Made by a program: the position numbers and the translations under genes. A stretch of 64,000 nucleotides of DNA from Heterotrichella gracilis (Eukaryota; Sar; Xanthophyceae; Tribonematales; Xanthonemataceae): positions 1 through 64,000 of the forward strand of contig JAULBX010026163.1 of the NCBI GenBank assembly GCA_032358255.1, in the 5' to 3' direction. Below are positions 230 to 62,147 of the stretch, one piece after another. How positions within the stretch are numbered: the first letter of the stretch is position 1; every line of letters starts with the position of its first letter. Below the pieces are notes generated by a model that was not told the DNA's origin, ran no database searches, and saw only the letters and a list, made by a program, of their open reading frames with translations.

Positions 230-3200
230 TCTGCGCGTGGCTCCGCCCCCCACCACCTGTTCACCCTCACTGAGGCGGAGCACATACGCAGGATCATGGC
301 GGGAGCAAGCGGGGAGGGGCAGGTGGGGCCGCACACCCTTAGGGTTTAGGCTAGGGTTTTAGGCCAGGCTATCAGATTTCTCAGGTGGGTCATGACTGGA
401 GCAAGCGGGGAGGGCAGGTGAGGCCGCAACATGTAGGGTTTAGGGGATTGGGGGTAGGGTTTTGGAGGTGCATTAGAAGGATCATGACGGGAGAAAGCGG
501 GGAGGGGCAGGTGGGGCCGCACACCCTTAGGGTTTAGGGGATTGGGGGTAGGTTATGAGATATCTCAGATGCGTCCATGGCGGGAGCGAGCGGGGAGGGG
601 CAGGTGGGGGTATTTGGGGTAGGTTTTTGGTTAGGGTTTTGAGGTGCTGCATCAGAAGGGTTGTAACAGTGGGGAGTGGTCGGTAGGGCCGATAACTAAT
701 TACCTCATTTGGATTTGAGCTGCGCCGGGTACTCAATACTGTTCTTACTCTTGCCCTATTTGGGCATGGGGTGCGGTTTGCATCAGGAGCTGTTAACTGG
801 GATTTTGGTTGGGACCCATGGGATGTGGGTTATCAGAGTCAGAAGCAGGCGCTAGCAGAGAGATTCGCAGCAAGAAAGGACTCCACAGGTAAACCAGTGA
901 GTTTAAACACTTTCCAAGGGTTTAAACCCACTGAAATACCCTACAACAGGTTTCCGGCAGCAAGCGCACAGGCCCCCCGGATACCCCCCCGGTGCTCAAG
1001 CGCCCCTCCCCCTCCGCCTCCTCCCACCCCCCACCCCCCACCGACTCCCCTTCCTCCTCCACCACCACCACCGGCGCCAACCCCCTATTCAGGCGCAGCA
1101 TGTCTCTGGAGGATGCAGCAGAGGTGGTGCGCCTGGAGGTGGGTGAGTTAGATTTTAGGGTTTAGAGTTTAAGGTTTGGGGGATTTGGGATGCAGTGGAG
1201 GTGGTGCGGCTGGAGGTGGGTGGGTTAGGGTTTGGGGTATAGCGAGTAGGGTTTCGGGGTTAGGGTTTAGGATGCAGCGGAGGTGGTGCGGCTGGAGGTG
1301 GGTGGGTTAGGGTTTGGGGTTTAATGTTCAGGGTTGTATTGTTTGGGGTTGAGGATGCAGCATGTCACTGGAGGATGCTTCGGAGGTGGTGCGGCTGGTG
1401 GTGGGTGGGTGCTTTAGGGTTAAGGATTTGGGGTTTGGGTGCAGCGCAGGGGGTGAGATGTAGGTGGGTGGGTGTGGTGCTCGACAAGGGGTGCTCATTT
1501 CGAACCCTAAACCCTAACCTGTTGATGTTGAGCTGGATGTCGGCTGGGATTCTAAAGCCAAGGTGAGGGTGCTCAATGTGCAATGAATGTGGTCTCGGCA
1601 TCACGTGAGTGGGTACTGAGTGCTGTTGTGTGTACAGGTGCGGGGTCTTGTCTTTGCTGTGCGCGGCATCGACCCCCAGCTGCAGCAGTCTGCACTCAAG
1701 GAGCTGGCCAGGGTGGCAACAATAGAGTGAGTGGCAGTTAGGGTTTCGGCTCGGATGTTGGCTCTGGTTAGAATGAGTGGCGGCGGGGTTAGTATTGGCA
1801 GGGGGTTTCAGTTATGCCAGCCGGCAATTTTGGTATGTTGCCCGAGCCTTGTTGATCTCAAGAGGCTAGGGAATATGTGTAATCAAGGCAGTTGTGGTGG
1901 ATTCAAGTGTTTAGGGTTTAGGTTTGGGGTTTACTCGACCCCACAACCCACACCTCACCTCACCCCCCACCCGCAGTACCTACCAGCAGCCCCTGTCGGC
2001 CCAGATGGGGGACAAGGGGTGGAGGCGCCTGGTGGGCTTTGTGGACCCCTCCCAGCCACTGGGGGTGCGCCACCTGGCGGTGCATGCGATCAGCAGCTGC
2101 GCATGCGGGGGGATGGCCAATAGGGAGGCGCTGGGGAGGGCAGGTGCGCAGTTGGGGATTGTGGAATTGGGGACCCCAATGTTTTAGGAGTATGTTTATG
2201 TGGGGCCTGTGCGTTACTGCCTGCCAGCAAGACAAGATCCTCATACAAGTATGATAGTAGGCAACAGGGCTGTCAACCCACCCCCACCCCACCCCCGGGA
2301 ACCAAAACCTCACGTTCCGCCCCCTTTCCATCCCCAGATGCCGTCCCTGTGCTGCTGGGGATAGCCACCCAGCGTGACGGGGATGCGGAATTGCGCGTGC
2401 TATCTCTGGATGCCCTCTCCAATCTTGCCTGTGACTGCCCGGCCAATCAGGAGGCGGTGCGGGTGGCAGGGGGGGTGGAGGCGATGGTTGGGCTGTTGAA
2501 AGAAGGTACGATGGGAGGGGATGGAGGTCAATACATGGGCATGAGACCCATCAACTTGCACTTTCTGTTGTGTATCTGGTGTAGTTATATGGATTGCACT
2601 GTACATTGTTACGCAGCCAATCAGGAGGCGGTGCGGGTGGCAGGGACTCATTAAGTGGGTCGCATCAGTGAGGCCATTTTTTATGGAGTAAATGCAGGAG
2701 GATTTCAATGTATCACTGTGAATCCTCCTGGTAAATGGGCATTTTCTAGTCTTTTCCTTGAATTTGGACAGGTTTCTCTGGGATTACCCTTGTATCTTCG
2801 AACCAGCTCTTTGTAACAGGGCGCACATGCTCTGCCACATCTCTGCTGCAGGGTTGCTGGCCATGTCCTGTTCAGATGAAGCATTTGTGACCCCAAGCGT
2901 GTATTACTTTGGTATAATAATGATACAGATTTCAATGATATTTAAAATTTATTATTATTCAGATGCAGCAACTGTGACCCCAAGCAGACCGCATACTGAT
3001 GGACCGCATCTCTGTCATCTGTGTTGGCAAACGTTTGTGCTCGAGCAATGGGCTGCCAGCAGTGGCTGGAGCAACGGCGTTTTCCATCACAAACATCCGG
3101 GATTCAGTGCACCAGTATGAGGTCCCCTTGGGGATACAGATGTTGCACCTGAAAAATCGATGCCAGTTGGGGCAGCAGGTGGAAGCTGTGGACAAATTCA

Positions 3201-6200
3201 CTTGTATAGGAAGTGGTTTTACTAGTGATGACAGTTTACACGGGGGAATATACACCGCCTTTGCGATGCAGGTGGTGCTTTTGCTTCGGTCAAAGGTGTT
3301 TGCTAATCTATCTGTTATACTGGAATGCATGTAATCAAGTAACTAAGGAAAACCCTGCAGGCTTGACCCCTGTCCTCCACCGCAACTGCCTACTGGCCCT
3401 CGCAAGCGCGGTGCAGCGAGCGCGGGCCAATCAGGACGCGGGTGGTGTGTCTCGGGCCAATCAGAACGCAGCAGTGGCCGCGGGGGCTCTGCCTGTGCTG
3501 GTGGCGACAGCTGGCGAGGCGGGGGAGGAGGAGGTGGGTGGGTGGGTGGGTTGAGTGGTGGGGGAGGGGGTGTGAGTAGGGGTTATCCCATGTAAAGTGC
3601 ACACAAATTAAACTGCATCTGCACATAGCTGCGCACGCAAATATAGCCATACATGTGGGTAGCACCCACACAGTATGGGTTTGTGTTGCTGCCAACGCCT
3701 GCCCAGGAGGCCTGCACGCACATATATGCTTATCGCTGACATCCACCCCACACACGCGCATACACACCGCTTTAATACTAGAATGCACGTAGGATTGAGT
3801 AACTATAAATTAAATAAATTATAAACTAAATTTGAAATGTCGTCTGAAGTAAACAATTAACATGTACATGCGCAGGTGCGCGCCGCGGCCACCTGCCTCG
3901 ACTGCCTGCGGGCAGGGAACGTAGCCACAATGGATGAATGGATATTGCTGGCAACCACCCCACACACACGCATACACACCACTGTACCACTGGGTTGCAT
4001 GTGAGTTCAGTAACTTCTTAACTTATAAATCAACTTATAAACCAACTGTGAAAATCTGGTGCGGACAAAACAACCCAAATGTATATGTGCAGGTGCGCGC
4101 CGCTGCCGCCACCTGTCTCGACTGCCTGCGGGCGGGCAACGCAGCCATCGACGGGGCCCTGCGTCAAGGGGAGGGGGTTTCCCCCCTGGTGGAAGCTCTC
4201 AGGGGTGGGGAGGAGGGGGGTGGAGGGGGGGCCAGGGCCATGTGGCACCTGGCGGATGCGGTGGCAGGTGGGTGGTGGGTGGTGGGTGGTGGGAGGTCAG
4301 GGGTTTGACCCCAGCGCGTGGGTGGTGGGTGGGGTGTTTTGTGGGGGGCGGTCCCAGGTTCAATATTACCGGCTGTGGTTTTGTCTTTGACAGTGCATTG
4401 ATTAGGTCGTCACTTCGGTTGGGAAATGGGAATTACAATCACCCTACCATCCGCAGTCTCCTGGTAGAGGGTAGTCATCATAAGGAGGGTTGTTGAAGGT
4501 GGGCGAAAACCCTACCAAAGCCTTATCAAAACCTTTCACGCAGGCAACCCCGAGTACCAGTCTGCAGCCCGCCTGGCTGGCGCCATACCCCTCATTGTGC
4601 GCCAGCTGGAGGTAGGCGTGGGGGAGGAGCCAGCCACGCTGGGGGCGCTGTGCGCTGCATATAACCTAATGGAGGGTAACGCGGTGTGTGCCAGAAACCC
4701 TAAAACCCTATTGCTGGGTATCGCGCTGTGCATTGTGTATCACCTAATGGAGAATTATACGGTGCGCGCTAGAAACCCTTATATCCTAAGCGAGGGTGAC
4801 GCAGTGCCCTACTGTAGTTTTTTTGCGCCACTCTGGATGCAGCCTAGGACCAATGGACGGTTTTGGCAGTGTGTTTGATAGCACTCCCCCCTCTTGTCCT
4901 TACCTTTGCATCTCCCCTGGCTCCACGCAGGAGAACCAGCAGGCATTCGAGGAAGCAGGCGGCTGCGGCGCACTAATTTGCCTATTGGACTGCGGTGATT
5001 GTGGCGGTGGCGGTGGCGGTAATGGTGGCGGTAATGGTGGTGGTGGTGGTTGGGAGGCGCGTGTGGAGGGTGCCCTGCGCTGCACCCACCAGCTCATCCA
5101 CTGCCCCCAGCTGCAAGGGGAGGAGGTGGTGAGGAGGCTGGTCAAGGTGTGTAACGGGGAGGGGAAAAAGGGGGTGGGGGGGGATTGAGATGCTGCTGCT
5201 GTCTCCACCTCCCCACACCATCCGTGCAATGCAAATCCAATCCCCAGGCACTGCAACCACCCACACCCACCCCGCAGGTTCTCGTTTCCCTCCCCTCCAC
5301 ATGTGCATGTGAGCAGTCCACCTGGGCCCTGTGCAGCCTGGCATCTGCTGCAGAGGAAGCAAGGTGAGCCCGAGCTCGGGGGTTGTGCTGGCATATCCCC
5401 TATACCCATGAACAGGGTTTTTTGGCGTCCCGTATTAGGCGAGCGGGCGGCGGGCACCGGCGGCCGCTAGCCTGAAAGGCTACGGCACAGCAATAGCAAA
5501 GTTAGAACCGCGATTTCCTGAGTAGCGGTTTCTTGATTATTGCGTCCCCGTGTGGATCATCCCTGGGATCCAACGTGCCGATTTGTATCCCCAGTGCATG
5601 AAACCTCAAGAGACCTCGCACGGCATGCCCCCCCTCGCTCCCGCGGAGCAGGTTATAGGGTTTTCAGATGTATGGAAGCAAGGTGAGCTCGAGCCCTGGG
5701 TCGTGGTGGCATACCCCCTCACCATGTTGAGCCGTCCCCTACATCCATGAACAGGGTATTGTAGGTTTTTAGGGTCGCCACTGCTTGGTCAAGCTTAATG
5801 TTTCATGCTCACATGCAGGGATTGTGTGCGGGAGTGCGGAGGTGTACCTCCCCTGGTCACCATGTTGGACCATCCCCCTGGCTCAATGGCTGCTGCGGGT
5901 GGTGCATGGGCGCTGATGCAGCTGGCAGTGGAGAACAGCGCCAATCAGCAGGTAATCAGATTGGATTGGATTGGATCACGTCACTTCGCTGGGTGGCCAC
6001 CATCTGCCACGCTGGAAACAGTGTCAGTTAAGCCTTGGCTCTAGGACTGGGGTCAGGCATATCCAGGCATGCTAACCTGGCTTCGAAGCTGGAAAGCAAA
6101 TACTTACTTACTTACATCGCTGGTCATGGCATGCCGTCTCATCTTTGTTTGATGCACTCACACTTTTATCATGACGAATTCAACGAAAACATGACAGCAA

Positions 6201-9200
6201 TTACAACAACATTTTGTTTTCTTCAATAACAACAATGGCAATAGCTTTGACAGCAACAAGATTGATCCTTTCCACACACCCTGCAGGCGATCGCCAGCGC
6301 AGGCGCCATCCCCTCCCTCATCTCCCTCCTCTCCTCCCCTGGGGCATCAGAGATGGCACTGGAGGGGTGTGCAGGGGCACTTTTAAACCTGGCAGCGCTC
6401 AACCCCCCAAATCAGGACGAGATTCGGGCCCAGGGGGGCATACCAGCGTTGGTGAAACTGGTGGGTGGCCACCCGCACAGCCCCATTACCCTCAATGCGG
6501 CGGGGGCGCTGCGGAACCTGGCTGCGGAATCTGCGGCAAATTGCGACGCTGTACGGTAAGGGCGTTAACCTATGAATGCTTATTTCTCGTGCAGCCAGAT
6601 CGAGTACACCCATTGCACAGTCTGGCAGGCTTCGCAGCATTTTCAAATATGTCAAAATCATGATGGTTATAAGCCCTTGTTGAATCGATCAAAGCTGCTT
6701 TGCTACCTCCTCTTCTTCTGTACACAGTTGTGCCTTTCCACGGCTGTAGAGAAAGTTTATGTTTCCCTGTTCCTGGATCAGTACAAGTCATTTGTTTCCC
6801 GTTCCTTGCAGCGAGGCCGGTGGCATTCCCCCCCCCTTGTATCCCTGCTGGCCTGTGGGTCTGAAGAGGGGTACATCACAGCAAATTAATTTTTTAGTTA
6901 TTACTAGCCTTTAAATGCTCAGATTATGGTGTTTTTCCCCCCTTTTTTGCAGGGAGGCCGGTGGCATCCCCCCCCTTGTATCCCTGCTGGCCTGTGGGTC
7001 TGAGGAGGGTGCCATCACAGCAGCAGAGGCACTGGCGCACCTTGCAGCCGGGAATGGGGCCAATCAGCGCGCCCTTGAGGAGGCAGGTGGGCCATCTAAA
7101 CCATAAACTATAATCCCTACATTCTAAACCCAAATCCTAAACTTTCCCAGGTGGGCCAAGGTTGTCGGTGGTGCATGCTGTTGCATGGATCAAAATTCTA
7201 GCCCCTAGTTACTCTTGCGTGTCCTGTTCTCTGTGCATGCGTGCGTGTGCAGGGTTAGCTATTTAACCTGTTAGGGTTTAAGGCTGCATCATGTGTGAGC
7301 GGCGTCTGTGGCCTCTCCCCTGAACCCTGGGCCTTATAACCCTAAACTTTAAAACCAGTGGCCTTGTAGTACTCGTTGACCTGGAGTGGCCCCTGGACCA
7401 TGCCCCTGAATGCCACCCATGCCATGTCACGTGCGTGTGTGCGCAGGGGGTGTCAAGCAATTAATTGCGCTGCTTGCCAGCGGCCCCTGGGTGGATGTGA
7501 GCACAAGTGGGCTGCACTGGAATACCCTAGAGCTTAAACCCTAAATCCTGCACCCTTGTCGTGCGTGCAGGGGGTGTGAAGCAACTGGTTGCCTTGCTCG
7601 CCAGCGGCCCCTGGGTGGATGTCAGCACAAGCGCCCTGCTGGCACTGACCCAGGTCATGGGGGGAGGAAAAGCCATAGAAACCCTAGGAACCCCAGGAAC
7701 CCTACCCCAGTCAGACATGCAGGCGTGTGTGGCTGCGCATGGTGCCGCCCCCCTCCTCATCTCACTGCTTAAGGCGGGGCCCAACCACCCCACCACGCCC
7801 TACGCATGCAAGGCGCTGCAGTTGTTTGTGGAAGGAAACAGGGTGCGGTTAAAACCCTAAACACTCTGGATGTTACCTTGAAAACCCTAGAAACCCTCAA
7901 TCTATAGACCCTGGTACAGAGCGCCAAAAGTCTAGAGATTTAAACCTACGCATGCAAGGCGATGCAGCTGTTTGTGGAGGGAAGCAGGGTGTGGGCAAAA
8001 CCCTAGGCATATCCCTAAAATCTTGGAAACCCTTGTGGCTTTATTCTCTACGCATGCAAGACGCTGCAGCTGTTTGTGGAGGGGAACAAGGTGCGTGAAA
8101 AACCCTCGAAACCCTGGCTGTATCCTCGAAGACCCTAAAAACCCTGGTGGAGGGCAACCAAGCGGCCTTGCTGGATGCAACTCCACGTCCCTCTCTTCCT
8201 ATCTCACGTCATTGGTGTGACCCCTTTGTACCCTCCCGCAGGCCAACCAGGATGCGATCGCCGCCGCGGGGGGTACCCCCTCCCTCACCCGCCCCCTGTT
8301 GGGGGGTGCCGCATCCTCTGGCACAGTAGCCGCAGCCCGCATCACCCAGTTTAAAAAGCATTGTAAGCATCCTAAAATCCGTCTATATCTTTCAAATCCC
8401 ATCTTCCCACCCCCACAGGCCAACCAGGATGCAATCGCAGCCGCAGGGGGTATCCCCTCCCTCACCCGCCTCCTATTGGGGGGTGCAGCATCCTCAGGCA
8501 CAGCAACCGCAACCCGCATCACCCACTTGGAAAACATTTGAAAGCATCCAAAATCCTTCTATATCTCTCAAATCCCATCTTCCCCACCCCCTCAGGCCAA
8601 CCAGGATGCCATCGCAGCCGTAGGGGGCATCCCCTCCCTCACCCGCCTCCTATGGGGGGGTGCGGCATCCTCAGGCACAGCAGCCGCATGCACTGCCCTG
8701 GCAGCCCTGGTGGCCCACCACCACCCCAACCAATCGGCCCTGGCTGCGACCGGTGGTGGTGGTGACGGTGATGGTGATGGTGGCGGGGGTGGTGGTGGTC
8801 GTGGTGGTGGTGGGGGGGGGTTGGTGTTGCTGGTGGAGCTGCTTGGTGCTGGTCCGGCTGCTCCTGGGGTGGGTGCTGCGGCGCGCGCAGTGGGGGCTGC
8901 GGCGGGGGGTCACCGGGGGAACCAAGCGGCGCTGCTAAAAGCAGGTAGGGGGATAGGTAACGAGTAGGACTTTTCCCTGTTGTGCTCCTATTTTGTGGTT
9001 CAAACTATGAAGCATGCAAAAACACCTACCTGTTTATAGCGGTTATATCTCTTGTTGGAAGCAGGCAGGGGATAGAAGAACTATACTTTGGTTATTGTCT
9101 CCTCGAGTGCTCCCTGGTGTGTACTTGGACATGCAAAATGGTAGAAACCAACTACTTATTAGTTGGTGTTCTATGTTGTTTTCCTATTCATTCTTTCCTT

Positions 9201-12200
9201 CACCATTTTCCAGGCGCGCTGGATGCCCTGGGGCCCTTGTTGGAGCCCAACACCGAGGTCTCCCTCCTCCAAACAGCACCGCCCGCCCTCCCGCACCCTT
9301 CTTCTCGCACTCTTCATGCAGCACTTCATCCCCTTGATTTACCAATCCCGGTCACCCCTGCCCATTTCCCCTTGATTCCCTCCCCGTTTTCCAGGCGCGC
9401 TGGATGCCCTGGGCCCCTTATTGGAGCCAAACAGCGAGGACTCCCTCCTCCAAACAGCACTGGCCGCGGTATCAGCCCTGGCAGATGGGTGTGCAGCGGT
9501 GCAGGGCGCTGCCCTGGAGCTAGGGATCCTGGATACCTTAGTAGGGTTGCTGGGGGCGCAGGAGCCGGCGAGGCAGGTGGGTTGGCGGATTGCGTCGATT
9601 GAAGGGTTGTCGGGTTCTCTGTGGGGTTGGTCATACGCTAATATGGCTATCAGATAGCCACGTGAGGCTTTCCTTTAGTCCAGGGGGGTACACTTCAAAG
9701 GCACCTTTGTACCCCGCTGCCACCTCCGCCAAAGGTCTGCAGCTTTTCCACGCAATGTTCCATCGGCGCAGGCATGGCTACCCCCCGCAGCCGCCAGTGC
9801 CATCTCTGCCCTGCTGCACGACAGCCTAGCTGGCCAGGATGTGGTACGCCAATCGGGGGACATCTCGAGGCTGGTACGTGCATATTTTGAGAGCCTGGGA
9901 TTTGGACCCCGGGGTCAAATGACATCTTTGACCAACTAGCGTAACCCTATGTTTGCACTTTCTAGGAGTGGAGCCAGATTGGCAGCAGTTCTTGCACATG
10001 CAACGCCACTCTGTTTCGGCAGGCCTTGCAAATTTTCTGAAATGTCACTCGTTACCCTGTTACTTTTCCCGTCCTATTGTGCTGATTCCCGTTTCACCTA
10101 CCCAAAGGGTATTTTGTATGATACCCTAACCTAGGGTGTTTCCCGCGCCCGCAGTGCGACCTCCTAGGATGTTCCGACTCGCGCGCCCCTGCTGCGGCAT
10201 CGGCATTGCGCCATGTGGCGGACCGTCATCGCTTCAACCAGGATGCGGTGCGGGGAGCGGGGGGTCTGCCCAAGCTGGTGGCGCTTGTCAGAACATGTGC
10301 GTGTATTTCATTGCAACTATAGGGTGGTACACCACCCTTATCCATTGTCAGCAGCCAATATGGTCATGGCTATCATGTACATGACCATTGGCATATAGGT
10401 AGCATGATCCATTGCGCCTTGTGGCGAGCCGGCATTGGACCAAACAGGATGCGGTGCGGTGCGCGGAGGGTCTGCCCAAGTTAGCGGGCGCTGTTGAGTG
10501 AACGCGCATGCACATAGCACTTTGTCCCCATCGCTCTACACGAGGTATACCCTACCTGAACGAATCCCAAACCCTGAACAAAACCCTCGCTGCGCAGGCG
10601 ACACCCCAGGTGACTGCACCAGTGTGTTGGAGACCCTCTCCGCCTGCTGCCGCGACAATCCCCACAGCAAAGCAGCCCTCCGGGACTCGAATGCCATCCC
10701 TGCCGTCCTTGCCACGTTGGTCGCCACCACCAGCCATATTCCCAGTGACATCAACGCCGTCCCCAGCAGCTCAAATGCCGTTGTGGTGGACTCAGATGCC
10801 GCTTCTGGTGGGCTGAGTGCCATCCCCAATGGGTCACATTCCATCCCTAAAGGTGCAAATGCCATCCCCAGCAATTCGGACGCCATCCCCAGTGGCACGA
10901 ATGCAGTCCCAAATGAGCCGACGCCACTTGGCACAGCCAATGGACTATTGGCCAGCGCCAGCGGCCCCCAAGGGGGAAACAGTGATAGCCCTATTGATAT
11001 GCCTGGGGAGGGCAGCGCGATGGAAAACCTTGGGGGAAGTAGTGGCGGTGGGGACGCAGAGAGGAGTGGGGTGGTGGCTGCGTGCCTGGTGGCGCTGCGT
11101 GATGTGGGTGGTGGGTGTGGTGCAAGCTGTCGGGAGCTGGTGGTGGGGGAGGGGCTGGGGCTCATCGGCAGCTGCATACAGGTGAGGCACAGATAACATT
11201 TAGATTGCAATCACAATCACAATGGCAACACCAATCAAATGCACGATCACAATTGAGGCTCATTAGTAGGTGCCTCACCGGTAGGTGAGACGCAACTGCG
11301 ATTGTGGTTTGGCTGGTGTTTCCTCCCTGTTCATTTCCAATCCATAAAAAATCCATGACTTGTGCTGCATGAAACAAAAAGTAAAAGTGGTCTTCTGATC
11401 AGCACTGGCGTATCCATGCAACAGGAGACATTGCCCATCATCCAGCACCATGCCGCCCACCTCCTCCTAGATATGGTCTCGAATCATCCGGCCCCCCTGA
11501 CGGCGCACAAATTCCTCCCCCTCCTTCCCTACGTGCTACGCCTTCTGAAAACCCTTAGCGAGGGTAGTACAGCGAGGATAACCAGGCCCGGCAATGAAAT
11601 ATCCCTGTGTCAGACAGAGGGGCACACGTGGCAGCAGCAGCACACGTTGCTGCGCCTGGTTGCGGTTTTGGCACGCGAAAGTGTGGAGGTTCAAGACGCG
11701 TTGCGGGAGCAAGGGGCGTTCCCTATCTTGGTGGCGTACCTTAAATCAGGTGTGGATGTTAAAAGTGGGTTCATGCTTGGACCATTGTGTGCAGATGCTG
11801 TACAAACATCTCCACCCCTCCATTGCTGTCGTTTTATCATCCATCTGGACTCTCCTGCCTGAGAACCAATCACCGCTACCTTGGTCCTCCCTCCCTCATA
11901 TTCATCTGTTTTCACTTTACTAACCGTGCTTTCCTGCCCCAGGGCCCATCAACCCCGCCACCACCGCCGCAGCGGATGCCCTGCTTGCCGCCTGTGCCCA
12001 TAATCCCTCCAACCAAGACGCAGCCCGTGCCCAAGGGGGTTTACATGCCCTAGTGGCCCTTCTCCCCCGCACATGGCCTGATCACCCGCTGGCAGAGGCT
12101 GTCACGTGCGCGCTGGGTGGCCTGTGCCGGGGCCATGTGGCCAATCAGGTAGGGATTGATTGCATACACGACGCAAAGTGGACATAATCTACCCGAAATA

Positions 12201-12985
12201 GTGGACATTTTTCCTGCATGCCCTAGCGGCCCTGCTCCCCCATTCACGGCCTGACCACCCATTAGCAGAGACCGCCACGTGCGCTGTATAACTACCTGCA
12301 AGGGCCATGTGGCAAACTACGTAGTTTCCCCTTCTTGGTGGCATTTATCCATTATTTTTCAATGCCATGTGTAACTCACTTTTACCATTTTTTCAAAATT
12401 GGCGCAGGAGGCGCTGCGTGAGCTGGGTGGTGTGGATGCGCTGCTGGAGGTGCTGCGCCACCCAGGGGCGGCTGGGGGGCTGAGGCTAAGGGTGGCGGGG
12501 GCGCTGAGGGCGGCGTGTGGGGGAAGTGCGGTCAACAGGTGGGGGCTATATACCTAGGAGGGATAGGAGGTCGTCCCTTGTTTTCGTACCTTCTTTTTTC
12601 TGCTGCGAGGTTACTGGTGTTTGAGCGTTGTCTATCCTGGATGGTTTGGGGCGTTGACTGGGCCCTATCATTGCGATTGCAATGTTTTGTTTCTTGGAGA
12701 TTACAATTAACATTTTCTTCTGTAAATACAACCAGTAATTTTACACTATGTTTACCAAGACATTTTGTTTCCCCTCCCCGCAGGCAGCTGGTCCAGGAGC
12801 AGGGCGGTGGAACCATGGTGATGGCGGCCCTGGTGCTGGGCATGCGCCGCTTCCGGCCCGTGATGCAGGGGGTGCTGCTGGCCAGTGTGTCCATAGTGGT
12901 GGTGGGCATCGCCACGTGGGTGGCAGGGGCAGTCAAGCAGGCCCAACCACAGCCGAATATGACCAAGTTTGGGACACTGCAATGA
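230..12985 (+). CDS. Large armadillo (ARM)-repeat protein with a hydrophobic C-terminal tail
   Basis: Product is a superhelical ARM-repeat scaffold; its partner is unknown. Phase-consistent exons: 787-888, 972-1138, 1638-1726, 1977-2143, 2338-2505, 3361-3533, 4093-4267, 4544-4683, 4931-5146, 5278-5363, 5819-5951, 6287-6555, 6953-7086, 7571-7842, 8596-8944, 9395-9576, 9772-9873, 10155-10296, 10598-11181, 11425-11749, 11943-12148, 12408-12538 and 12784-12985 (TGA). They give about 1,500 residues. A further exon probably ends at 322; the start codon is not identified. A Ser/Pro/Thr-rich linker (972-1080) precedes the repeats. Typical ARM signatures are ANQDAIAAVGGIPSLTRLL, EAGGIPPLVSLL and AAGALRNLAAES. 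The last exon encodes a hydrophobic stretch (LLASVSIVVVGIATW) followed by a short polar tail, suggesting a tail-anchored or peripheral membrane protein, as in some Vac8-like proteins. That membrane role is inference. Many introns carry copies of adjacent exons. Confidence 0.88.
293..603 (+). repeat. Three echoes of an early ARM-gene exon
   Basis: The exon 3' end and donor at about 293-330 recur at 389-416, 480-510 and 574-603. Each copy keeps the core GCGGGGAGGGGCAGGTG with small changes and is followed by TTTAGGG-like motifs. The reading is direct from the sequence. Confidence 0.8.
1188..1410 (+). repeat. Three echoes of the ARM-gene exon ending at 1138
   Basis: The exon end encoding DAAEVVRLE plus its donor (GAGGTGGGTG) is repeated at about 1188-1220, 1270-1305 and 1352-1405. 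The third copy is longest and also keeps the codons for MSLED. Telomere-like GGGTTTAGG strings separate the copies. Confidence 0.85.
3700..4092 (+). repeat. Upstream duplication of intron end plus exon start
   Basis: Intron sequence from about 3760 to 3925, including the acceptor and the start of an exon (VRAAATCLDCLRAGN), is a diverged copy of about 3965-4145, which carries the functional exon beginning at 4093. Unlike most echoes, this one carries the acceptor side. Confidence 0.75.
4996..5054 (+). repeat. In-frame GGTGGC repeat
   Basis: Glycine-coding GGTGGC/GGTGGT repeats lie inside the ARM exon 4931-5146 and make a polyglycine insertion between helices. A similar tract lies at about 8752-8820 in the exon 8596-8944. 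Confidence 0.85.
8242..8545 (+). repeat. Two tandem echoes of the ARM exon at 8596
   Basis: Copies beginning at 8242 and 8419 repeat the start of the exon at 8596. Each has an acceptor and codons for ANQDAIAAAGG, then diverges after about 110 bases. Only the third copy runs on to a donor that joins in frame to 9395. The first two could be skipped pseudo-exons or rare alternative exons. Confidence 0.85.
9210..9285 (+). repeat. Echo of the ARM exon at 9395
   Basis: Acceptor plus codons for ALDALGPLLEPN recur here, about 180 bases upstream of the exon used. The copy loses the reading frame and has no clear donor. Confidence 0.85.
10742..10920 (+). repeat. Degenerate in-frame 30-base repeat
   Basis: Inside the large ARM exon 10598-11181, units encoding variants of NAIPS recur roughly every 10 codons. 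This is a low-complexity linker within the ARM array and probably unstructured. Confidence 0.75.
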
Positions 12986-19319: not shown

Positions 19320-19740
19320 GTTCAGCACCGCCCTCATTGCAGCACAGGCAGTGGTGGCGGCACCGCTGGCATTGGGTTGCTTGCACTTGGGGCGGCTTTC
19401 TGTCTAGCTTCAGTGTCCCTGAAGCACCAAGCGGTGATTGGGATGGGGTGGGGCGGGCGCTTTCTCCCTTCTAGAAAAAATGATGAACCCTAGGGCAGGG
19501 TTTAGCACCACGCATGTTGCTGCGGTGGCCGCACCTCTGGTATCCACAGGGTTGTTGGCACTTGCAGGGGGCAGCTTTCTGTCCAGCCTGCAAAAGACCT
19601 GAACACCAATTAGCAATGTGTGGGGCATGGGCCTGCAGCCATTTTTGTTTTGATTTTTCTTTTGTAGAAATTAAAGGCAGGGCTTGGCACCACTCGTATT
19701 GGCGCGGTGGCGGCACCCTTGGCATCTACCAGATGTTTTT
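19320..19740 (+). repeat. Three echoes of the RIQ-like last exon beyond the stop
   Basis: Partial copies at about 19323-19410, 19503-19602 and 19685-19735 follow the TGA at 19227-19229. The middle copy is the best kept and ends with codons for [11 protein letters not shown] and its own TGA. They could serve as alternative last exons or be inert duplications. Confidence 0.85.
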
Positions 19741-21983: not shown

Positions 21984-22070
21984 CGGTGTGATGCCCACCT
22001 GCGGACGTTGTAAAAGCACCTCAGGGAAACTTAACCATAACTTTTCGGGGTTTAATAAACTTGTGTCCAC

Positions 22071-50217: not shown

Positions 50218-53200
50218 ATGGGGTTGTTGGACCTGCCGGAGTGCCTGCTGGTGGAAATGCTGAGGCGGATGGACGTGGCGGCGGTGGCGGCGGCGTCACA
50301 GACGTGCAGACTGCTGTTTCGGCTGTGCTGTAAGTGGTAGCGGGCCGGGCATCGTCGGTTGCTGTTTTTACGGCATGCGGGGGACCCATATGCATGCATG
50401 TTGGAATTGTACCCTAGCCCCCCAAGGGATGTGTGAAACGGTCCGTTGACTTTGTGAAAAAACTCAGATCGCAGGGTGTGAGCAGCCCTGGTCCGTTGTC
50501 GCCAAGCAGGTCATTGTACACCATAAACCCTAACCCTACGCCCGAACCCTAAACCCTATGCCATCCACAAGGCCATGACAGTTGCGCTGCACGATATCCC
50601 CATTTTGTACCACGAAGAATGACCGCCCCTGTGTGTTAATTGCAGCATCAGACGAGCTGTGGGAGCCGCTGCCTGACGGTGAGACTCTAACCCTAAACCC
50701 TATACCCTAATCGCCCCCCACTAAAACAGCGCACTGGCATTCATTGCCAGTTCATTGCGCTTCATGCTGCATGCCTTGTGCCTCGCCCGACCGTTGCCGG
50801 TTGGCATGGCACGTCTCCACAGCTCTTAAACAACGATGTTGTTAGGGTGCAAAGTGTAGTATTGACTGGGGTTACCAAACAGTCCCTGTGTCAACACGCA
50901 CTCTGACTGCACACCTGTGACGCTGCCTCAATCCTTGCTGCATGCCAACATTATGGAAGGTTTTTGCTTCAAGCCTATCAAGGAATGTTGCCTGACACAC
51001 GGTGTGTGTATGCTATGCAGAGGACGGTGTGCGAGCGGCTGTGCGCCACTGCATGGCGCAAGCGCTGCACCTGCCGCCACAGGTGCCACTGAAACCCTAC
51101 CAAAACCCTACCAGAAAATCACCGTTCTCATACTCTACCATATGGTCCCGCATGAACCGTGCCTAAGGGCTTCACCCATCGGGAAGTACATGTAACCACA
51201 CTGTCGAGTGACTTGGGAGCTGTGTGGGCTCCTCCAATAACCATCAATTGTGCTTTAGTTTATGTAGTTTGAGAGACATAAGGCTTGCGTGCGCTTCTCC
51301 TGCCACCCTCAGGGTTTTGTTTGCCTCATGTAATAGGGTTTCACCTGCAACTTTAGGGTTTTTGCCTGCTTCATGTAATAGGGGTGTGTTCCCACCATTT
51401 GTTTGGCACAGGTTTTCCGGGTGGGGTGGCAGCGGGGGGGTGCAACCCGCTTCCCTGTCACTGTCAGCCTGCTTGGTTTGAGGGGGGTATTACACACGCA
51501 TGATGTGCTGGGGAGGGCACAGGAGGCGGCGCAGGCAATACAGGTGGGTGTGGGGGCCAGGAGAAGGAGGAATACGAGGTATCACAATAGATGTACCCAC
51601 AAGGATCTAGCATTGCATTCATTGCTTCAAATTGCAACTTTAACCCAAGCTCATCCATACGTCCACCCTACCTCGCCGTACACGTGACACCCCATGCCCA
51701 CAGGAACGGGCCGAGAGGGCCCGGCTTCGATTGCGCGCTTGGTCCACATCGGGCAATGTGCCTTGGCGTGCGGTAGCTGAGGCGGCGGTGGTGCATTGCC
51801 GCGCAGACAGGAGCAACATTCGCATGGCGCTGCACCCTGAGCAGGTGAGGGGGGGACTTCTAGTTAGGGTATGAAAAAGGCTGGCTTTAAAGATGTAGCC
51901 CTTGTCATGCAAAACCTCACTTTGTGCTGTGTTGCAAATGGACCCTTGGCTATGGTTGGGGTGGTGCACTGCCGTTCAGCCAGTAGCAGCATGGGCATGA
52001 GGCTGCACCTTGAGCATGTGGCGAGGGAGTCCTGTTGTTAAGGGTGGGAGGAAACCTTAGTTAGGGTTGTGATGCATCGTGTTGCTCCCCTCTCCATACT
52101 CCCCCACTTATCACACAACCCGGTTTCCGTTCAGTGTGTCCCCTTTTCTCATCTGACCCTGTTATCTTCCCTCTGGCTCAGCTGCTTTGCCTGGCCTTCC
52201 CTACCCTTCAAGCTCTCCCCTGCCCCCCCCTGGCAAACCCACGGGAGGACTCCACCATCACTGGAACCAGCGTCTCCATCCCCCACTCTCCCCACCCGCT
52301 GCCCGACAGGTGGGGGGCGGTGTGTGCCTGGCTGGAGGCGTGGCAGGGGGCTCGTGTGGGGGGTGGTGGGGTGCTGAGGATGGCAGGGGATCTGCCAGGT
52401 GGCAATCAGGGGGTGGCTGTGCACCAGCTGAGGAGGGGAGGTGAGTGGAATTCATTTTAAGTCTAATCATTCAATGTGTTATCAGTTTATCTATATTCTA
52501 TATTTTACTAGTGATAACACTTTAGACGCAGAGATTTCACACCACCTTAGCCGTGCAGGTGGCTCCTTTGCTGGCGGCGACAACGCTGGCCATTGCAACT
52601 TCCTAAAGAGGGTTGAAACTGCTGTCAACTGCCTGCATTGTATAGATTGGATCTGAGGCGGGCCTGTGACGCTGCCAGGCCACAATCAGGCGAAGCCCTT
52701 TGCAACGCTAATAATTTGTGTGGCAACGGGCTGCAGTTACAGACCCCAATGCCGTGCTCAAACACCCCAATCCCGGCTGCAGGGTTTCCATCCGCCTTGC
52801 CGCCAGAGTACACCCTATTGGAGCGTCACATCAATTGCCTGTTGGCATCAATCAAGAGCGCTTTGATCGTGGACAGGGGCCACTCATTTACAGATGATGG
52901 GAGGCACGAACCCACACAGCCACAGCCACAGCCACAGCCACAGCCACAGCCACAGCCACAGCCACAGCCACATGACCCTCCCTGCATGGGCTGCGTGTCT
53001 GACCTGGCAGCAGCCCTTGCTGACGTGGCGCCAAGCTGTAGCGGGGCAGGCACTGCGGACGCTGAGCTGGCAATGGCGCTGTTGCGGCTGCCAGGTGATG
53101 ATAGCCCCACTGGGTTGCTATCTTTTGCAATGTATTTGTTGCATTGCCAGGCGTAGCATGGACAATAGCCAGCCTTTACCCTCCCCCTGAATCCAGTGCA

Positions 53201-56075: not shown

Positions 56076-58582
56076 ATGGCAGCCAGTTCTTCAGCTCTAG
56101 CGCACTTTGTTCCTATAGAGAGCAGCACCCTGAAGCTATTGTTCCTTGAGCAGCAAAGGTAAGGCTTGCCAACTGCGTGTTGTCAACAAATCATGATATG
56201 GCTCTTGGGGTGAGGCATACCCAGGCATGCTCATCTGGCTCCACAGCTGGAATGCAAATACTCACTTATTTACTTTATGTTGTCAAATCGCCTGTACCAA
56301 AGGCGTTGAAACGAAATGGATCTTTCTTGCAGGTTCATCAACCACTTTTTTGACACTCTGGACTATGGGCCCATCGAAGCTTTCTGCAAGGTATGGGCGC
56401 TCTGGTTTCATAACTGTATCGATACCTGCCCTCTCAGGTTGATGCAATGCGTTATGATGGCAGGGTTGTGACCTGCTCAGTCCATTGATAATTGCTGACC
56501 CCTTTCGGGACCACCCACAGGCTTGTGTAGCTGTCTAGGATCACCAGTGTACTTGGCATCGGGTTGGGCAGGTGTTGACATTTTACATGGGCCACTCGCA
56601 GGCCTGCTTAGACTGCAAAGGCTGCATTCTGTTCACCGGAGTGGGCAAGAGCGGCTTTGTGGCTCAGAAGATCTGCCAGACCCTGGTGTCCACGGGCACG
56701 AAAGCCATTTTCTTGAGCCCTACCGATGCGCTCCATGGGGATATTGGCATCGTCAATGAGGGCGATCTGGTGGTTGCCTTCTCCAAGAGCGGGGCCACTG
56801 AGGAGCTGATCAAGCTGCTGCCCTATGCCAAGGTAAGCAGTCCTGGCAGCACCCTGCAAAGCCCTTCATCCCCATCAGTCAGTCAGGGACATGCAATGCA
56901 GCAGTACACAAGGTTAGGCGGTCAGGCATACACACGCGGCGCCAAAGAATCACTGCACGCCCATTGGTAATCGTGTGCCCATTCATGCAACGTGCCGTCG
57001 ACCAGTGGCGCAAGGCATGCAGGCCGGACTGCTTGTCTGGCTTTATAGCTGGAATGCATGTAAGTAGATAAGGAAGCAATGGCTGGCGTTCACATCTGGC
57101 TCTCAGGCCAAACAGTCACTGCACAAGCATTGGTTATCATTTGCCCATTCCATGATCATGCAATTTGTCGACCAATGGCGCAGGGCATGTAGGACAGATT
57201 GCGAATTTGGCATTATGGCTGGAATGCATTTAAGCAGACAGGAAATGCATGAAGTAGATAGGTAAGCAACTCGTCAACTAGTGGCTGACCTTCACCCTCT
57301 GGCTCCTAGGCGAAGGGTGCAACGCTGGTGAGCGTGACCAGCCTCAAGGGATGCAAGCTTGAGCAGCAGTGCGACATGGCCATCCACCTGCCTCTGAAGC
57401 GCGAGCTGTGCCCCTTTGACCTTGCGCCGGTCACATCCACCGCCATTCAGATGTTGTTCGGAGACACGGTGGCCATCGCCCTCATGCAGGTGTGAAATTA
57501 GGGTGTAGGGATGGTTGGCGTTTAGGGTTTAGGGTTGGTTGGCAATTGCCCTCATGCAGGTGTGAAATTAGGGTTTAGGGATGGGTAGGCCATTGCCCTC
57601 ATACAGGTACACATCAACGGTGGCATGTGTGCCCCAAGTGAGATGCATCCACCAACAGTAGACACACGAGATGATTACTCCTGTTTTCCAACATGCTGCA
57701 AGAATCAGCCCCATGTATCTCAGGGTCAGTACAGGGTCACCACCTTGTCGCATACAATGCATGCCGCTGCTCATCTCTTATTCTACAATCTGATTTTTTT
57801 ATAAATTTTTTATTATTATTTTCAACGTTTTCCTTGAGTTTCTTGTTGTGTGCTCCAGGCCAAGAACTTGACCAAGGACGAGTACGCCATGAACCACCCC
57901 GCGGGCAGGATCGGCAAGCGCCTCATCCTGCGGGTCACCGACGTCATGATCAAGGGGAGCGACCTCCCCCTCGTGCAGTCAGGCACCTCAGTCGCAGACG
58001 CCCTCATGGAGCTCACCAGCAAGGGCCAGGGCTTTGTGCTGGTCATGCAGGACAGCCAGATGCACGGGGCGTTCACCGACGGGGACCTGCGGCGCGCGCT
58101 GCAGCGCCTGGGGCCCCACGCGCTGTCCTCCAGGATCGACGAGGTGATGACCAAGTCGCCGCGCTGGTGCGCAAGCGATATCAAGGCCATTGATGCCATG
58201 CTGGTAAGGGTGGTTGGCTGCTGGGCTAGGGTCGAGGGATGTGGTTTTAGGGTTAAGGGTTTGCGGACATCAAGGCCATTGATCAAGTGAAGCTGGTAAC
58301 ATACATGGGTGCTGTATGCAAAGGTATTGAATTTCAGCATGCATCACAATGGTTGCACCACAAGAGTGCCTGGGTATCATCGTTGCACCTGCTGCTGCAG
58401 TCTGCTAGAGTCCTACACTGCTGATTTGCAGCGCTCTCATCAAACGTATATTAATTGAGAACCCCGCACTTTTGCCACAGGACATGGAGCAGAAGCCCAA
58501 GGTGAACTTCCTGGCGGTGGTGGAGGATGGGGCGGTGGTGGGGGCGGTGACGCTGCACTCCTTGGTGTCAGCTGGACTGTAG
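56076..58582 (+). CDS. kdsD: D-arabinose 5-phosphate isomerase (SIS plus two CBS domains)
   Basis: Interconverts ribulose 5-phosphate and arabinose 5-phosphate, the first step to the acid sugar Kdo. Exons 56076-56158, 56333-56390, 56572-56832, 57310-57489, 57859-58203 and 58481-58582 (TAG) give 342 residues, near the bacterial KdsD/KpsF length. The SIS domain shows [26 protein letters not shown] and [34 protein letters not shown] matches the family's APT-SST stretch. [12 protein letters not shown] is the family link to two CBS domains: [14 protein letters not shown] with [13 protein letters not shown], and VDEVM-like with [20 protein letters not shown]. It starts [15 protein letters not shown] with no clear targeting signal, so it is probably cytosolic. 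In plants the enzyme feeds Kdo into rhamnogalacturonan II; some green algae put Kdo in walls or scales, so a wall role is likely but inferred. Confidence 0.95.
57515..57610 (+). repeat. Two echoes of the kdsD exon-4 end
   Basis: The exon end and donor, ATTGCCCTCATGCAGGTGTG, recur at about 57541-57562. A shorter, changed copy lies at 57588-57610. GGGTTTAGGG strings lie between the copies. Confidence 0.85.
58262..58295 (+). repeat. Echo of the kdsD exon-5 end
   Basis: ATCAAGGCCATTGAT and a donor-like CTGGTAAC repeat the exon end at 58203 about 60 bases downstream, after GGGTTAAGGG. Confidence 0.8.
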
Positions 58583-59375: not shown

Positions 59376-62147
59376 ATGAACGGCTTCAAGGGCATCATCG
59401 CATGTGCCCTCCTGGCCCTTGTGGCCTCCAGTATGGTGCCTACAAGCACTGCTGAGGACCTAACGACGGAATCTATTGGCCACAGTGAGTGATTGCACAA
59501 CTGTGCTCATAATTGCCTTGCCTAGACGAGTTCCAACGCTTGAAACTGACGGTGCACGCCGCTCCATTGAGTGCATGCCCAAGGCTCGATGCCTCGAGCA
59601 CATGCTTCGTTTGCATACCGCTGGCAACTGCCACATAGCCCTGTTGTGGTTCAATACTAGTTGTACTTCTGTTGTAAGGCGGTATCACCTGTTTTCGGCC
59701 GCGTTCGTGCAGCGTTATGTCACAAGCATAGGTGTGGGTGGAGCCCCTGATGCGCCACGGTCGGTTTCCAGTGCCGTTTCACAAAGGGCCGAGCTTGCCC
59801 ACACGCAAGCCCACCCTTCCTTGACAACTTCATTATTTGATCGTTTTCTAGCTCGTGCTGCAATTTTCCTGTGCATTGGGTTGTCATTTATGGGTTCCAG
59901 TGCCCATCACCATGGGTTCACCATAGGTCATGCATGCACACCCTTTGCTGGTCAAAGGCGGACACAGCCGTGCACATACATTGGATCATAACGTGTGACA
60001 CACTGATGGAAGGTTTAAACTAAGTATCTTGCTCTGTGTCAAGCAGCAGTAACCTCGGTGCCGACACCCCCCTCGACATCATCCCAGCCCATGCACATAA
60101 CCCCCCCACAATGCAACCCACTGCACACACTTCACCGTCTCTAACATCTTCTGCTTTATCCCTGCAGTCTTCAACGACTTCATCAAGACGCTGGGCCAGG
60201 AGTTCGCCTCGTTGGACTCGCCCCTCGCCTCTGGTGGTCGCCGCCTACGAACCGTTGACATGGGCGACATCAAGAGCTTCTTCGACAACCTGTTCCACAA
60301 GGACTGGTTGGATGTGGTGCCAGACAACTGGAAGGATGGCAGTAAGTGTAGCCCTCTCTCCCTGAGCCATCCTGCTTCCTGTGTACTATACCGCATGCCC
60401 GCATGTCGGCAGCACTGCAGCTGCACTGCACACGCACCCCTCGCAAGCGGCGGCAGTCGTTTCTGTTTTCATTGTCCCTCTGCCGATATACAAGGAACAC
60501 CCACGTTGGACACTCGTCTCGCACCTTGGTTTTCCGTTACATGTGTCCCCCAAGGCGGTTTCGCCTTTGGCACATCGAACTGACGACCTCCGTTAACTAA
60601 TTTTCTTTGTTTTCACTTGTGCAGAATTCAGCTGGGAGAAGCTGGGCGACTTCGAGTTCAGCAGCAACGTGTACGACTTCATCAAGGACAAGTCATGGAA
60701 GAACATCGAGAAGCCCGGCTCGCTCATCGAGGTAACGCTCGATGCCATTCTTTCGTTGTTTGCAAATCTGGTCCCTCGAGCCAAACTATATATCTACTAT
60801 GTTCAATTGCCACGGCCAAACACAGTGCAAAAGCTTTTGCATCCATGTTTGTCCGCCACATATCCTCTTTTTCGACTTTTGGCTGCTGATTCGTTGTTGC
60901 CAGAAATTGTGGCCACACCCACACTTTCTGAACCTGTTTGCAATTGCCAGCCAATATTTACTCTTCAGCCTGCTGCAATTGCACCCAACACCTGGCTTCA
61001 ATCCACTGATCAGCACCACAGTCTTTCTCAGCCTGCTTGCAGTAGTGGCACACACACAAACCCAAACCTTTTTCAGCCTGACATGCAATTGCCAACCACC
61101 ATTTATCTGGCATATATGACATTTACTGACCAGCCCCACATCTTTCCTTCCTGCAGCTGAAGGACATGGTTGAGAACGTGACCTCCCCCTTCTGCGAGAC
61201 CGAGGGCTTCACCCCCCCCAAGAAGGTCCTGTCAGGCTGCTTCGGCCCCGAGATCATCCTGCAGCTGCTGCCCAAGACCTGCACCATCCACTACGAGAGC
61301 CACGAGGTGGTGTGCGAGCCCGCAAAGCTGGTGCTGCTCAAGAAGCCAGGTGAGTGCATATTTTTTAGGTTTTAGGGCTTAGCGGTCAGTCCTAGGGTTT
61401 AGCGTATGTGAGCCTGTCAAGCTGGCACTGCTCAAGGCGCCAGGCAATTTCAGGGTTTAGGGTTTAGCGCCCAGCCCGTAGGGTTTTGTATTCAGCGCGT
61501 GCGTGCCCGCAAAGCTGGCGCTTTTCAAGAAGCCAGGAAGTGCAGTTCTTAGGGTTTAGGGTTTCCTGTAAAGAACCTGTGTCGTGCGATATGGCGTGTG
61601 CATGCGCCAGTACCTGTGAGGGTTTTGTTTTGCAAGTGTTACTGCTTTTCAGTTAGTTACCCTAAACCCTACAGCCTGCGGCATCTACAAGACCCAGTTT
61701 GCCAAGCTGGTTGTGACTGTTGCTGTTTGTAAGCCCTAGATTTTTACTAGACAACGTGCCCGCAAGGCTCCTGCTCCTGAATGGGCCCAGCTTAGCCCCA
61801 CTCATGTCCACTGTTGCTGGCCCTTTCCAGGAAACTGCAAACCCAAGGACATCTGCGCCGCCACCCTAAGCCTCAAACCGTTAAACCCTACACCCTACAC
61901 CCTCTCCCGCAGGCCACATCAGCGCTCCCATTCAAACCCTGCATTGCAAAACCCTATACGAACCCTGCCCTCCCCCGCAGGCTACTGCAACGCCAAGTAC
62001 ATCAGCGCCGCCACCTGGGCCGGCAAGGAGTGCAAGATCAAGGTCAACGTGGGCTTCTCTGAGAGGAGCAAGCTGGGCGGGGGCTCCATGCTGGTGCCAC
62101 TGGCCAACATCTTCCACAAGGGAGACCCAGCGCCCTCCGAGGCATAA
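59376..62147 (+). CDS. Secreted Cys-containing protein of unknown family
   Basis: Five phase-consistent exons (59376-59484, 60168-60341, 60625-60731, 61157-61349, 61981-62147, TAA) encode 249 residues. The start MNGFKGIIACALLALVASS then MVPTSTAED is a clear signal peptide with a likely cut after the TSTA stretch, so the product enters the secretory pathway. The mature part is rich in Phe, Trp and Lys (IKSFFDNLFHKDWLDVVPD, FSWEKLGDFEF). It has a Cys-spaced C-terminal half: FCETEG, SGCFGPEIILQLLPKTC, VVCEPAKLVLLKKPGYC and GKECKIKV. The even number of cysteines suggests disulphides in an extracellular, vacuolar or wall protein. I recognise no family. Introns 4 and its flanks carry copies of exons 4 and 5. 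Confidence 0.8.
61400..61880 (+). repeat. Exon echoes in the last intron of the secreted-protein gene
   Basis: Copies of the exon-4 end (AAGCTGGTGCTGCTCAAGAAG in the source) lie at about 61415-61445 and 61508-61540. A copy of the exon-5 start (GGNCK..DICAAT-coding) lies at about 61828-61868, upstream of its source. TTTAGGG runs surround each. Confidence 0.75.

What the first reader, a model, noticed from the sequence alone, without database searches (positions are those of the whole stretch)
230..62000. Exon echoes: repeated local copying of exon fragments with their splice sites into nearby introns
In seven multi-exon genes (ARM, RIQ, RRP6L3, folB, the nine-exon F-box gene, kdsD, the secreted protein), part of an exon reappears one to three times within a few hundred bases, often with the donor or acceptor and some intron still attached. 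Examples: 389-603, 1188-1410, 2613-2645, 3875-3940, 7447-7510, 7946-8095, 8242-8545, 9210-9285, 10405-10490, 12213-12326, 18443-18610, 19320-19740, 28524-28606, 47458-47755, 51948-52025, 57541-57610, 58262-58295. Copies vary in divergence, so the process seems ongoing. The sequence shows the copies directly; a named mechanism is inference. It could be a major source of intron growth, decoy splice sites and alternative exons in this lineage.
Basis: seen in the sequence. Interest (0 to 1): 0.85.

Follow-up and report, generated by a model that had tools for sequence, protein, structure and literature searches.

The report
Exon-edge duplications decaying inside introns
In this probable alga, short pieces of DNA that straddle an exon's edge have repeatedly been duplicated in place, and the spare copies sit in the neighbouring intron as slowly decaying junk, which makes the gene a readable record of what is probably a DNA-repair accident.

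Summary
In the window plus 22 other eukaryote-like loci (284 kb) there are 122 direct repeat pairs within 600 bp, in 84 clusters, 72 with exon bases. Separate inverted copies: none; 19 palindromes exist, none exonic. A shuffle gave none. The copies decay like dead sequence beside a living exon.

Copies of an exon's 3' part plus donor lie downstream in 26 of 26 pairs; copies of an acceptor plus the exon's 5' part lie upstream in 22 of 22. Free copying into nearby introns would not give this (log10 P -9.8 over 42 events). I read these as in-place duplications across exon edges, probably from repair of staggered breaks, tolerated because splicing removes the spare. Many pairs have an unrelated spacer that plain tandem duplication plus erosion does not explain.

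This is a known mutation class (one boundary-crossing potato case found in print), here at high local density. Alternative exons and assembly error are disfavoured for the bulk. A regional link to telomere-like intron words is unexplained.

The parts
290..609 (+). Array of three to four copies of an exon 3' part (ATGGCGGGAGC..GGGCAG) with donor and telomere-like intron start, 5' end of the ARM gene
1095..1473 (+). Three to four copies of exon end (GATGCAGCGGAGGTGGTGCGGCTGGAG) plus donor and TTAGGGTTT-rich intron start, ARM gene
2442..2471 (+). Source inside ARM exon 2338-2505
2616..2645 (+). Echo, 30 bp at 100% identity, in the downstream intron; flanks unrelated
3731..3942 (+). Near-contiguous first copy (intron part + acceptor + exon 5' part), spacing 212 bp, upstream of exon 4093-4267. 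My reading: an acceptor-type echo; the gene finder calls a small exon 3876-3911 in it, so it is not in the direction count
6798..6883 (+). Acceptor-type echo upstream of exon 6953-7086 (source 6939-7022, 88%)
7437..7515 (+). Copy of acceptor + exon 5' part upstream of exon 7571-7842 (84%); differences mostly synonymous (9 of 11); both copies predicted coding
7945..8145 (+). Two further copies of the end of exon 7571-7842 with donor, downstream (82-89%)
8235..8688 (+). Three tandem 177-bp units of acceptor + exon 5' part, 87-89% identical; the last unit is continuous with exon 8596-8944
9195..9286 (+). Acceptor-type echo upstream of exon 9395-9576 (89%)
10410..10480 (+). Echo of interior of exon 10155-10296, downstream (83%)
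12217..12284 (+). Echo of sequence 12044-12111, partly exonic (81%)
18444..18597 (+). Two downstream copies of the end of exon 18176-18325. The first carries the donor and is itself called an exon by the gene finder (18436-18519); the second is classed internal and lacks a stretch lying between short direct repeats (read from the sequence)
19326..19605 (+). Copies of the 3' end of the last exon (19040-19229) beyond the predicted stop; a gene-end edge, not a donor
28531..28604 (-). Copy of exon 28689-28800 3' part + donor (RRP6-like gene), downstream in gene sense, 91%; predicted coding by the gene finder
47467..47520 (+). Donor-type echo of folB exon 47238-47378, 91%
51960..52020 (+). Donor-type echo of exon 51704-51844, 80%
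57540..57584 (+). Donor-type echo of exon 57310-57489 (SIS/CBS, kdsD-like gene), 93%
61404..61564 (+). Copies of the end of exon 61157-61349 (+ donor), 69-83%

Best explanation
Short stretches (about 30-300 bp) crossing an exon-intron edge are duplicated in place in direct orientation, the copies starting 60-400 bp apart (median 166). Where the stretch crosses a donor, the original exon keeps working and the second copy lies downstream in the intron. Where it crosses an acceptor, the last copy joins the rest of the exon and the first copy is left upstream in the intron. Splicing removes the spare, so the duplication is tolerated and the spare decays neutrally (shown from sequence: direction rule, neutrality). 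The most likely source is error-prone repair of staggered double-strand breaks, in which both overhangs are filled in and joined, often with unrelated filler between the copies (inferred). Duplications inside exons would be purged and those inside introns fade faster, so what is visible is mostly exon-edge pieces (inferred; it explains only part of the exon excess).
For: Orientation: 122 direct and 0 separate inverted pairs within 600 bp; the 19 palindromes are at most 5% exonic. Direction rule, recounted with gene ends set apart: donor-type echoes downstream in 26 of 26, acceptor-type upstream in 22 of 22, and 5 of 5 copies of a gene's 3' end downstream. The held-out loci (not used to train the gene finder) contribute 6 of 6 splice-edge pairs. 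Of 122 pairs, 67 were classifiable as exon source plus non-exonic echo, and 48 of these cross a splice site. Under free insertion within 400 bp into non-exonic DNA the observed side has mean probability 0.61, and the joint log10 P is -11.3 for 48 pairs, or -9.8 for 42 distinct exon/type events. Neutral decay: 55 pairs, 919 codons, pN/pS 0.41 and 11 stops in the echo reading (7 new, 4 at the source's own stop codon). Simulation of a neutral echo beside a constrained exon gives 0.46-0.52 and about 12 stops; both constrained gives 0.09-0.19 and about 4. In the exon part, 26 of 30 gaps are not multiples of three. Four predicted proteins or parts that skip the intron echoes match Pfam: FolB, SIS+CBS, Arm, 3'-5' exonuclease. 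In print: small tandem duplications form by fill-in at breaks with 3' overhangs and end-joining (PMC8355091: abstract, introduction and passages), and a potato gene has a tandem duplication crossing an intron-exon boundary (PMC4974935: passages).
Against: Copies are often not contiguous: aligned length/spacing is below 0.6 in 72 of 122 pairs and at least 0.8 in only 29. Simulated contiguous duplications with the indel rate seen here give below 0.6 in 4-12% of events with exon-part identity of 85% or more (25% at 70-85%), against an observed 45-57% that does not change with age (48 edge-crossing pairs). So a spacer must be added from the start, which I infer and have not shown. The exon excess (80 of 105 pairs contain exon against 52.9 expected by random placement) is larger than the simulated detection bias gives (43%). 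Observed pN/pS 0.41 lies just below or inside the 95% ranges of the neutral models, so some echoes may be constrained. Gene models come from my own self-trained HMM, without RNA data, and it calls some echoes as exons. No outgroup or strain was available to show a duplication event.
Confidence: 0.66

Rival explanations
1. Free local copying: templated insertion (template switching, polymerase-theta type) drops exon pieces into nearby introns.
For: Sharp copy bounds and unrelated spacers in many pairs; exon bias.
Against: The direction rule in 48 of 48 splice-crossing pairs (log10 P -11.3 by pair, -9.8 by event) and 0 separate inverted copies against 122 direct. From general knowledge, templated insertions would often be inverted and fall on either side.
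Confidence: 0.12
2. Assembly artefact: two diverged haplotypes or strains stitched together so that an exon edge appears twice.
For: Would give direct, local, same-gene repeats; some pairs differ mostly at synonymous sites (e.g. 7437/7561: 9 of 11; L012 9642: 10 of 10).
Against: Both copies would be constrained (pN/pS 0.09-0.19 expected against 0.41 observed), without new stops (7 seen) or frameshifts (26 of 30 exon-part gaps); divergence runs from 0 to over 30%, and three-copy families exist.
Confidence: 0.06
3. Alternative or mutually exclusive exons: echoes are real cassette exons.
For: 17 of 105 pairs have both copies predicted coding, pN/pS 0.22; GT kept in 17 of 26 echo donor sites.
Against: Echoes are mostly partial exons with one splice edge; 3 of 67 classified pairs are whole small exons; stops and frameshifts near the neutral level.
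Confidence: 0.08
4. Plain contiguous tandem duplication whose intron half has eroded, with no filler.
For: Direction rule; 29 of 122 pairs are near-contiguous; beyond the aligned part the intron side keeps a trace of similarity in 8 of 28 pairs against 1 of 28 on the exon side.
Against: Simulation predicts near-complete alignment at young ages; the observed ratio is about 0.6 at all ages. Only a very high rate of long indels imitates it, and then few older pairs stay alignable.
Confidence: 0.25

Closest known systems
Small tandem duplications from fill-in and end-joining at staggered breaks (CST/Pol alpha-primase, NHEJ; Schimmel et al. 2021, PMC8355091; rice natural insertions, Vaughn and Bennetzen 2014, seen only as a reference)
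   Same: Direct orientation, short, local; in print linked to break repair.
   Different: Here the surviving copies cross exon edges and many have an unrelated spacer; the enzymes are unknown; spacings are larger than the 'under 100 bp' class in that paper's introduction.
[quoted passage not shown] potato RdRp case PMC4974935; Drosophila cases PMC2891723; review PMC3443670; passages of all three papers seen)
   Same: The potato duplication crosses an intron-exon boundary, as 48 pairs here do.
   Different: Here existing introns are lengthened. Convincing new introns were not shown: 4 in-register donor/acceptor hits by prediction, two of them in one array and at least one ambiguous.
[quoted passage not shown] cited, text not seen)
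   Same: Internal gene duplications recognised as frequent in eukaryotes.
   Different: I recall no report of the direction rule or neutral decay of edge copies; not checked in that paper's text.
Tandem exon duplication / mutually exclusive exons (recalled)
   Same: Local repeated exon sequence.
   Different: Echoes are mostly partial, carry one splice edge and decay.
Introner elements (recalled)
   Same: Affect many introns.
   Different: The echo is a copy of the adjacent exon, not a mobile family.

Membership tests
Break-repair small tandem duplication | Copies in direct orientation and close together | tested here: met
   122 direct, 0 separate inverted within 600 bp; 19 palindromes, none exonic
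Break-repair small tandem duplication | Copies contiguous (unit length equals spacing) | tested here: inconclusive
   29 of 122 with ratio at least 0.8, 72 of 122 below 0.6; simulation
Break-repair small tandem duplication | Placement as expected for in-place duplication across an edge | tested here: met
   26 of 26 and 22 of 22 pairs, 42 of 42 events
Break-repair small tandem duplication | Dependence on end-joining / fill-in enzymes; junction microhomology | not testable with these tools
   needs mutants or fresh events
Intron gain by tandem duplication | New intron whose donor and acceptor lie in register in the two copies | tested here: inconclusive
   4 hits among 122 pairs, by prediction only; the L015 case gives the same protein either way (my reading)
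Tandem/mutually exclusive exons | Whole exon copied, both copies coding | tested here: not met
   For the bulk: 3 of 67 classified pairs are whole exons; neutral decay. A minority (17 of 105 pairs) have both copies predicted coding
Templated (theta-type) insertion | Copies inserted in either orientation and on either side (recalled) | tested here: not met
   0 separate inverted copies; 0 of 48 splice-edge pairs on the other side
Introner elements | Same element in introns of unrelated genes (recalled) | tested here: not met
   Only few stretches tested: a three-copy echo stretch has one genome match; 2 of 4 spacers have only short partial matches elsewhere, 0 of 2 control introns do
Haplotype-chimera assembly artefact | Both copies under coding constraint | tested here: not met
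   pN/pS 0.41, 7 new stops, 26 of 30 exon-part gaps not multiples of 3

The most novel reading that the evidence does not exclude
Telomere-like G-rich words scattered through the introns mark, or cause, break-prone genes. Breaks there are processed by the telomere fill-in machinery (CST with DNA polymerase alpha), which duplicates the overhang and leaves exon-edge copies with a spacer, so that a telomere-maintenance activity is a main engine of intron growth in this lineage.
Probability: 0.08. Interest if true: 0.85.

Novelty: new variant of a known kind. Interest (0 to 1): 0.5.

Why it matters
From the papers seen here, duplication-born changes of gene structure are documented mostly as single cases or small sets. 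Here one genome keeps dozens of neutrally decaying copies of varied age beside their functional sources. That lets the rate, size, position and fate of exon-edge duplications be measured, including how spliceosomes tolerate duplicated splice sites. It also warns that ab initio gene finders can call such copies as exons: mine did in several places.

Tried and rejected
Free dispersed copying was my first reading of the sharp copy bounds; the direction rule overturned it. My first count of that rule (31 donor-type pairs, 53 in all) included 5 copies of a gene's 3' end as donors; one search sets them apart (26 donor-type, 48 in all). My first statement that there are no inverted repeats left out palindromes; one search counts 19. 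Plain tandem duplication with erosion was my second reading; simulations do not reproduce the spacing. A first seed for the gene finder failed and was replaced by ARM and RIQ exons read by eye.

Telomere words as a direct partner: per-locus rank correlation with echo density is 0.71 (23 loci, P 1.4e-4; 12 shuffled-unit controls -0.31 to 0.37; intron density 0.49). At intron level within echo-rich loci there is no significant link (17 of 43 echo introns against 64 of 195 others carry a word, P 0.48; all loci 21 of 50 against 92 of 383, P 0.01). So I treat it as regional co-variation, not a mechanism. Telomere words are denser inside duplicated intron parts (27.3 per kb) and in gaps between copies (14.6) than in other introns (4.3), but copying itself multiplies words.

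Two genomes mixed in the assembly as the cause of rich and poor loci: codon usage correlates 0.99 between 7 rich and 11 poor loci and splice consensus is alike, so I rejected it for those loci. Both sets were called with one gene model, which favours likeness. Statement on print: the listings of searches showed no title or abstract describing this density or direction rule; most listed papers were not opened, and subscription papers are mostly not held.
Full report
What was checked. The window is bases 1-64000 of contig C365 in an assembly of 68.5 Mb and 903 contigs. I self-aligned the window. I also sampled 20 stretches of 10 kb from other contigs and later 5 more as a held-out set. Three of the 25 (L002, L008, L021) have about 35-38% G+C and 80-91% of bases in long open frames, look bacterial, hold no direct pair within 500 bp and were left out of the eukaryote counts. 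That leaves 23 loci, 284 kb.

The observation. Within 600 bp there are 122 direct repeat pairs and no inverted pair of separate copies (105 direct, 17, tallied). My pair counts left out stretches that are their own reverse complement; there are 19 of these palindromes in the 23 loci, at most 5% exonic each. Merged where they overlap, the direct pairs form 84 clusters, 27 of them in the window; 72 of 84 include at least 10 predicted exon bases. The median start-to-start spacing is 166 bp (quartiles 112 and 205), and 108 of 122 are within 250 bp. One dinucleotide shuffle of all 23 loci gave none.

Gene models. No annotation or RNA was available, so I wrote a self-trained hidden Markov gene finder seeded with exons read by eye: 34 genes, 399 exons, 373 introns in the window and 17 loci, with donors GTRRG and acceptors GCAG|G. 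Four predicted proteins or parts without the intron echoes match Pfam FolB, SIS and CBS, Arm and 3'-5' exonuclease (from the Arm part I left out one copy that the finder had called an exon). The finder calls some echoes as exons, which blurs the classes.

Exon content. In one search, 80 of 105 pairs contain exon in at least one copy (58 exon-intron, 17 exon-exon, 5 exon-intergenic) against 52.9 expected when the same pairs are placed at random. Neutral fading of intron-intron pairs explains part of this, but a simulation of neutral duplication and detection gives only 43% exon-containing. An exon excess therefore remains unexplained.

The direction rule. In 67 of 122 pairs one copy is exonic and the other is not. 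The other 55 (exon-exon, intron-intron and the like) were not used here. Of the 67, 26 carry an exon's 3' part with its donor, and all 26 echoes lie downstream. 22 carry an acceptor with the exon's 5' part, and all 22 lie upstream. 5 are copies of a gene's 3' end, all downstream; 11 are internal (10 down, 1 up); 3 are whole small exons. The held-out loci gave 6 of 6 for the two splice-crossing types. If copies were free to land in any non-exonic place within 400 bp, the joint probability would be 10^-11.3 by pair, or 10^-9.8 counting each exon and type once (42 of 42 events on 38 of 476 predicted exons). In-place duplication across an edge gives the rule automatically.

The spare copies are dead. 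In 55 exon-intron pairs (919 codons) mismatches by codon position are 97, 89 and 174. pN/pS is 0.41. 11 echo codons read as stops, 7 of them new and 4 at the source's own stop codon. Simulated neutral echoes beside constrained exons give 0.46-0.52 and about 12 stops; two constrained copies give 0.09-0.19 and about 4. In exon parts 26 of 30 gaps are not multiples of three. This argues against assembly of two haplotypes and against alternative exons as the bulk. The observed 0.41 is at the low edge of the neutral ranges, and the 17 exon-exon pairs have pN/pS 0.22, so a minority may be real exons, or wrongly called.

Spacing. In 63 pairs with room for the test, similarity stops at the copy bounds: only 6% of left and 21% of right flanks exceed the null 95% level. 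Split by side for 28 edge-crossing pairs, 8 intron sides and 1 exon side exceed it. Aligned length is at least 0.8 of the spacing in 29 of 122 pairs and below 0.6 in 72. Simulated contiguous duplications with the indel rate seen here fall below 0.6 in 4-12% of cases at exon-part identity of 85% or more (25% at 70-85%), against an observed 45-57% in the three age classes of 48 edge-crossing pairs (this set comes from the 18 training loci and includes some gene ends). Very high rates of long indels imitate the ratio but leave few older pairs alignable. So many events probably had a spacer from birth. Of 4 spacers searched in the genome, 2 have short partial matches on other contigs and 2 have none; 2 control introns have none. 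The numbers are too small to conclude from.

Telomere-like words. Eight-base words of the TTTAGGG repeat occur at 6.4 per kb in introns, 1.5 between genes and 0.15 in exons. A 20-base repeat word occurs 1,037 times in the assembly against 0 for its reversed control. Echo density and word density outside duplicated bases rise together across loci (rho 0.71, 23 loci), but not between introns of echo-rich loci. This is a lead, not a mechanism.

Mechanism. Shown from sequence: direct, in-place, edge-crossing, neutrally decaying, present at many loci, uneven between loci, with ages from identical to about 67% identity. Inferred: repair of staggered breaks by filling in both overhangs and joining, sometimes with filler. 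The published precedents are fill-in by CST and Pol alpha-primase at 3' overhangs followed by end-joining (PMC8355091: abstract, introduction and found passages) and one potato tandem duplication crossing an intron-exon boundary that created an intron (PMC4974935: found passages). Duplication-born introns are also reported in Drosophila (PMC2891723: passages) and reviewed in PMC3443670 (passages). Vaughn and Bennetzen 2014, Hellsten 2011 and Gao and Lynch 2009 were seen only as references or as cited by others.

Verdict. It is best described as a dense fossil record of exon-edge duplications, a known mutation type, with an unexplained spacer, an unexplained exon excess and an unexplained regional tie to telomere-like words. 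I cannot say whether the density is unusual among eukaryotes, because no other eukaryotic genome was available here.

Noticed in passing
32778-32809 and introns throughout: Interstitial TTTAGGG runs in introns; exact runs of 8 to 32 bases, mostly one orientation per intron (39 G-only, 56 C-only, 15 mixed of 110 introns with a word); enriched in the first 40 bases after donors.
   Followed up: partly
20238-22710 and 23071-25508: Inverted pair of LRR-like genes (LRR by eye), 73% identical over 2.5 kb.
   Followed up: no
44165-45901: Direct repeat at about 1.3 kb spacing with several large palindromes (44596-44813, 44911-45048, 45313-45565), possibly a mobile element.
   Followed up: no
42571-42673; L009 3404-3553 and 5105-5250; L024 8390-8536: Palindromic stretches: 19 in the 23 loci, none exonic; the one at 42571 is 99% self-complementary over 103 bases.
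   Followed up: partly
G000 contigs C1, C180, C570 (L002, L008, L021): Low G+C, ORF-dense stretches that look bacterial inside the assembly; contig C1 is 894 kb long.
   Followed up: no
about 3421-3471: A short duplication inside a coding exon (CGGGCCAATCAG twice), seen by eye.
   Followed up: no
49798-49870: tRNA-Ala (TGC), the only tRNA found in the window.
   Followed up: no
1-77: Window (contig) starts with a long C run, perhaps an assembly end effect.
   Followed up: no
L010, L012, L014, L017: Most echo-dense sampled loci (9-17 pairs per 10 kb), while L003, L005, L006, L007, L011, L018 and L026 have none; the cause of the regional difference is unknown.
   Followed up: partly
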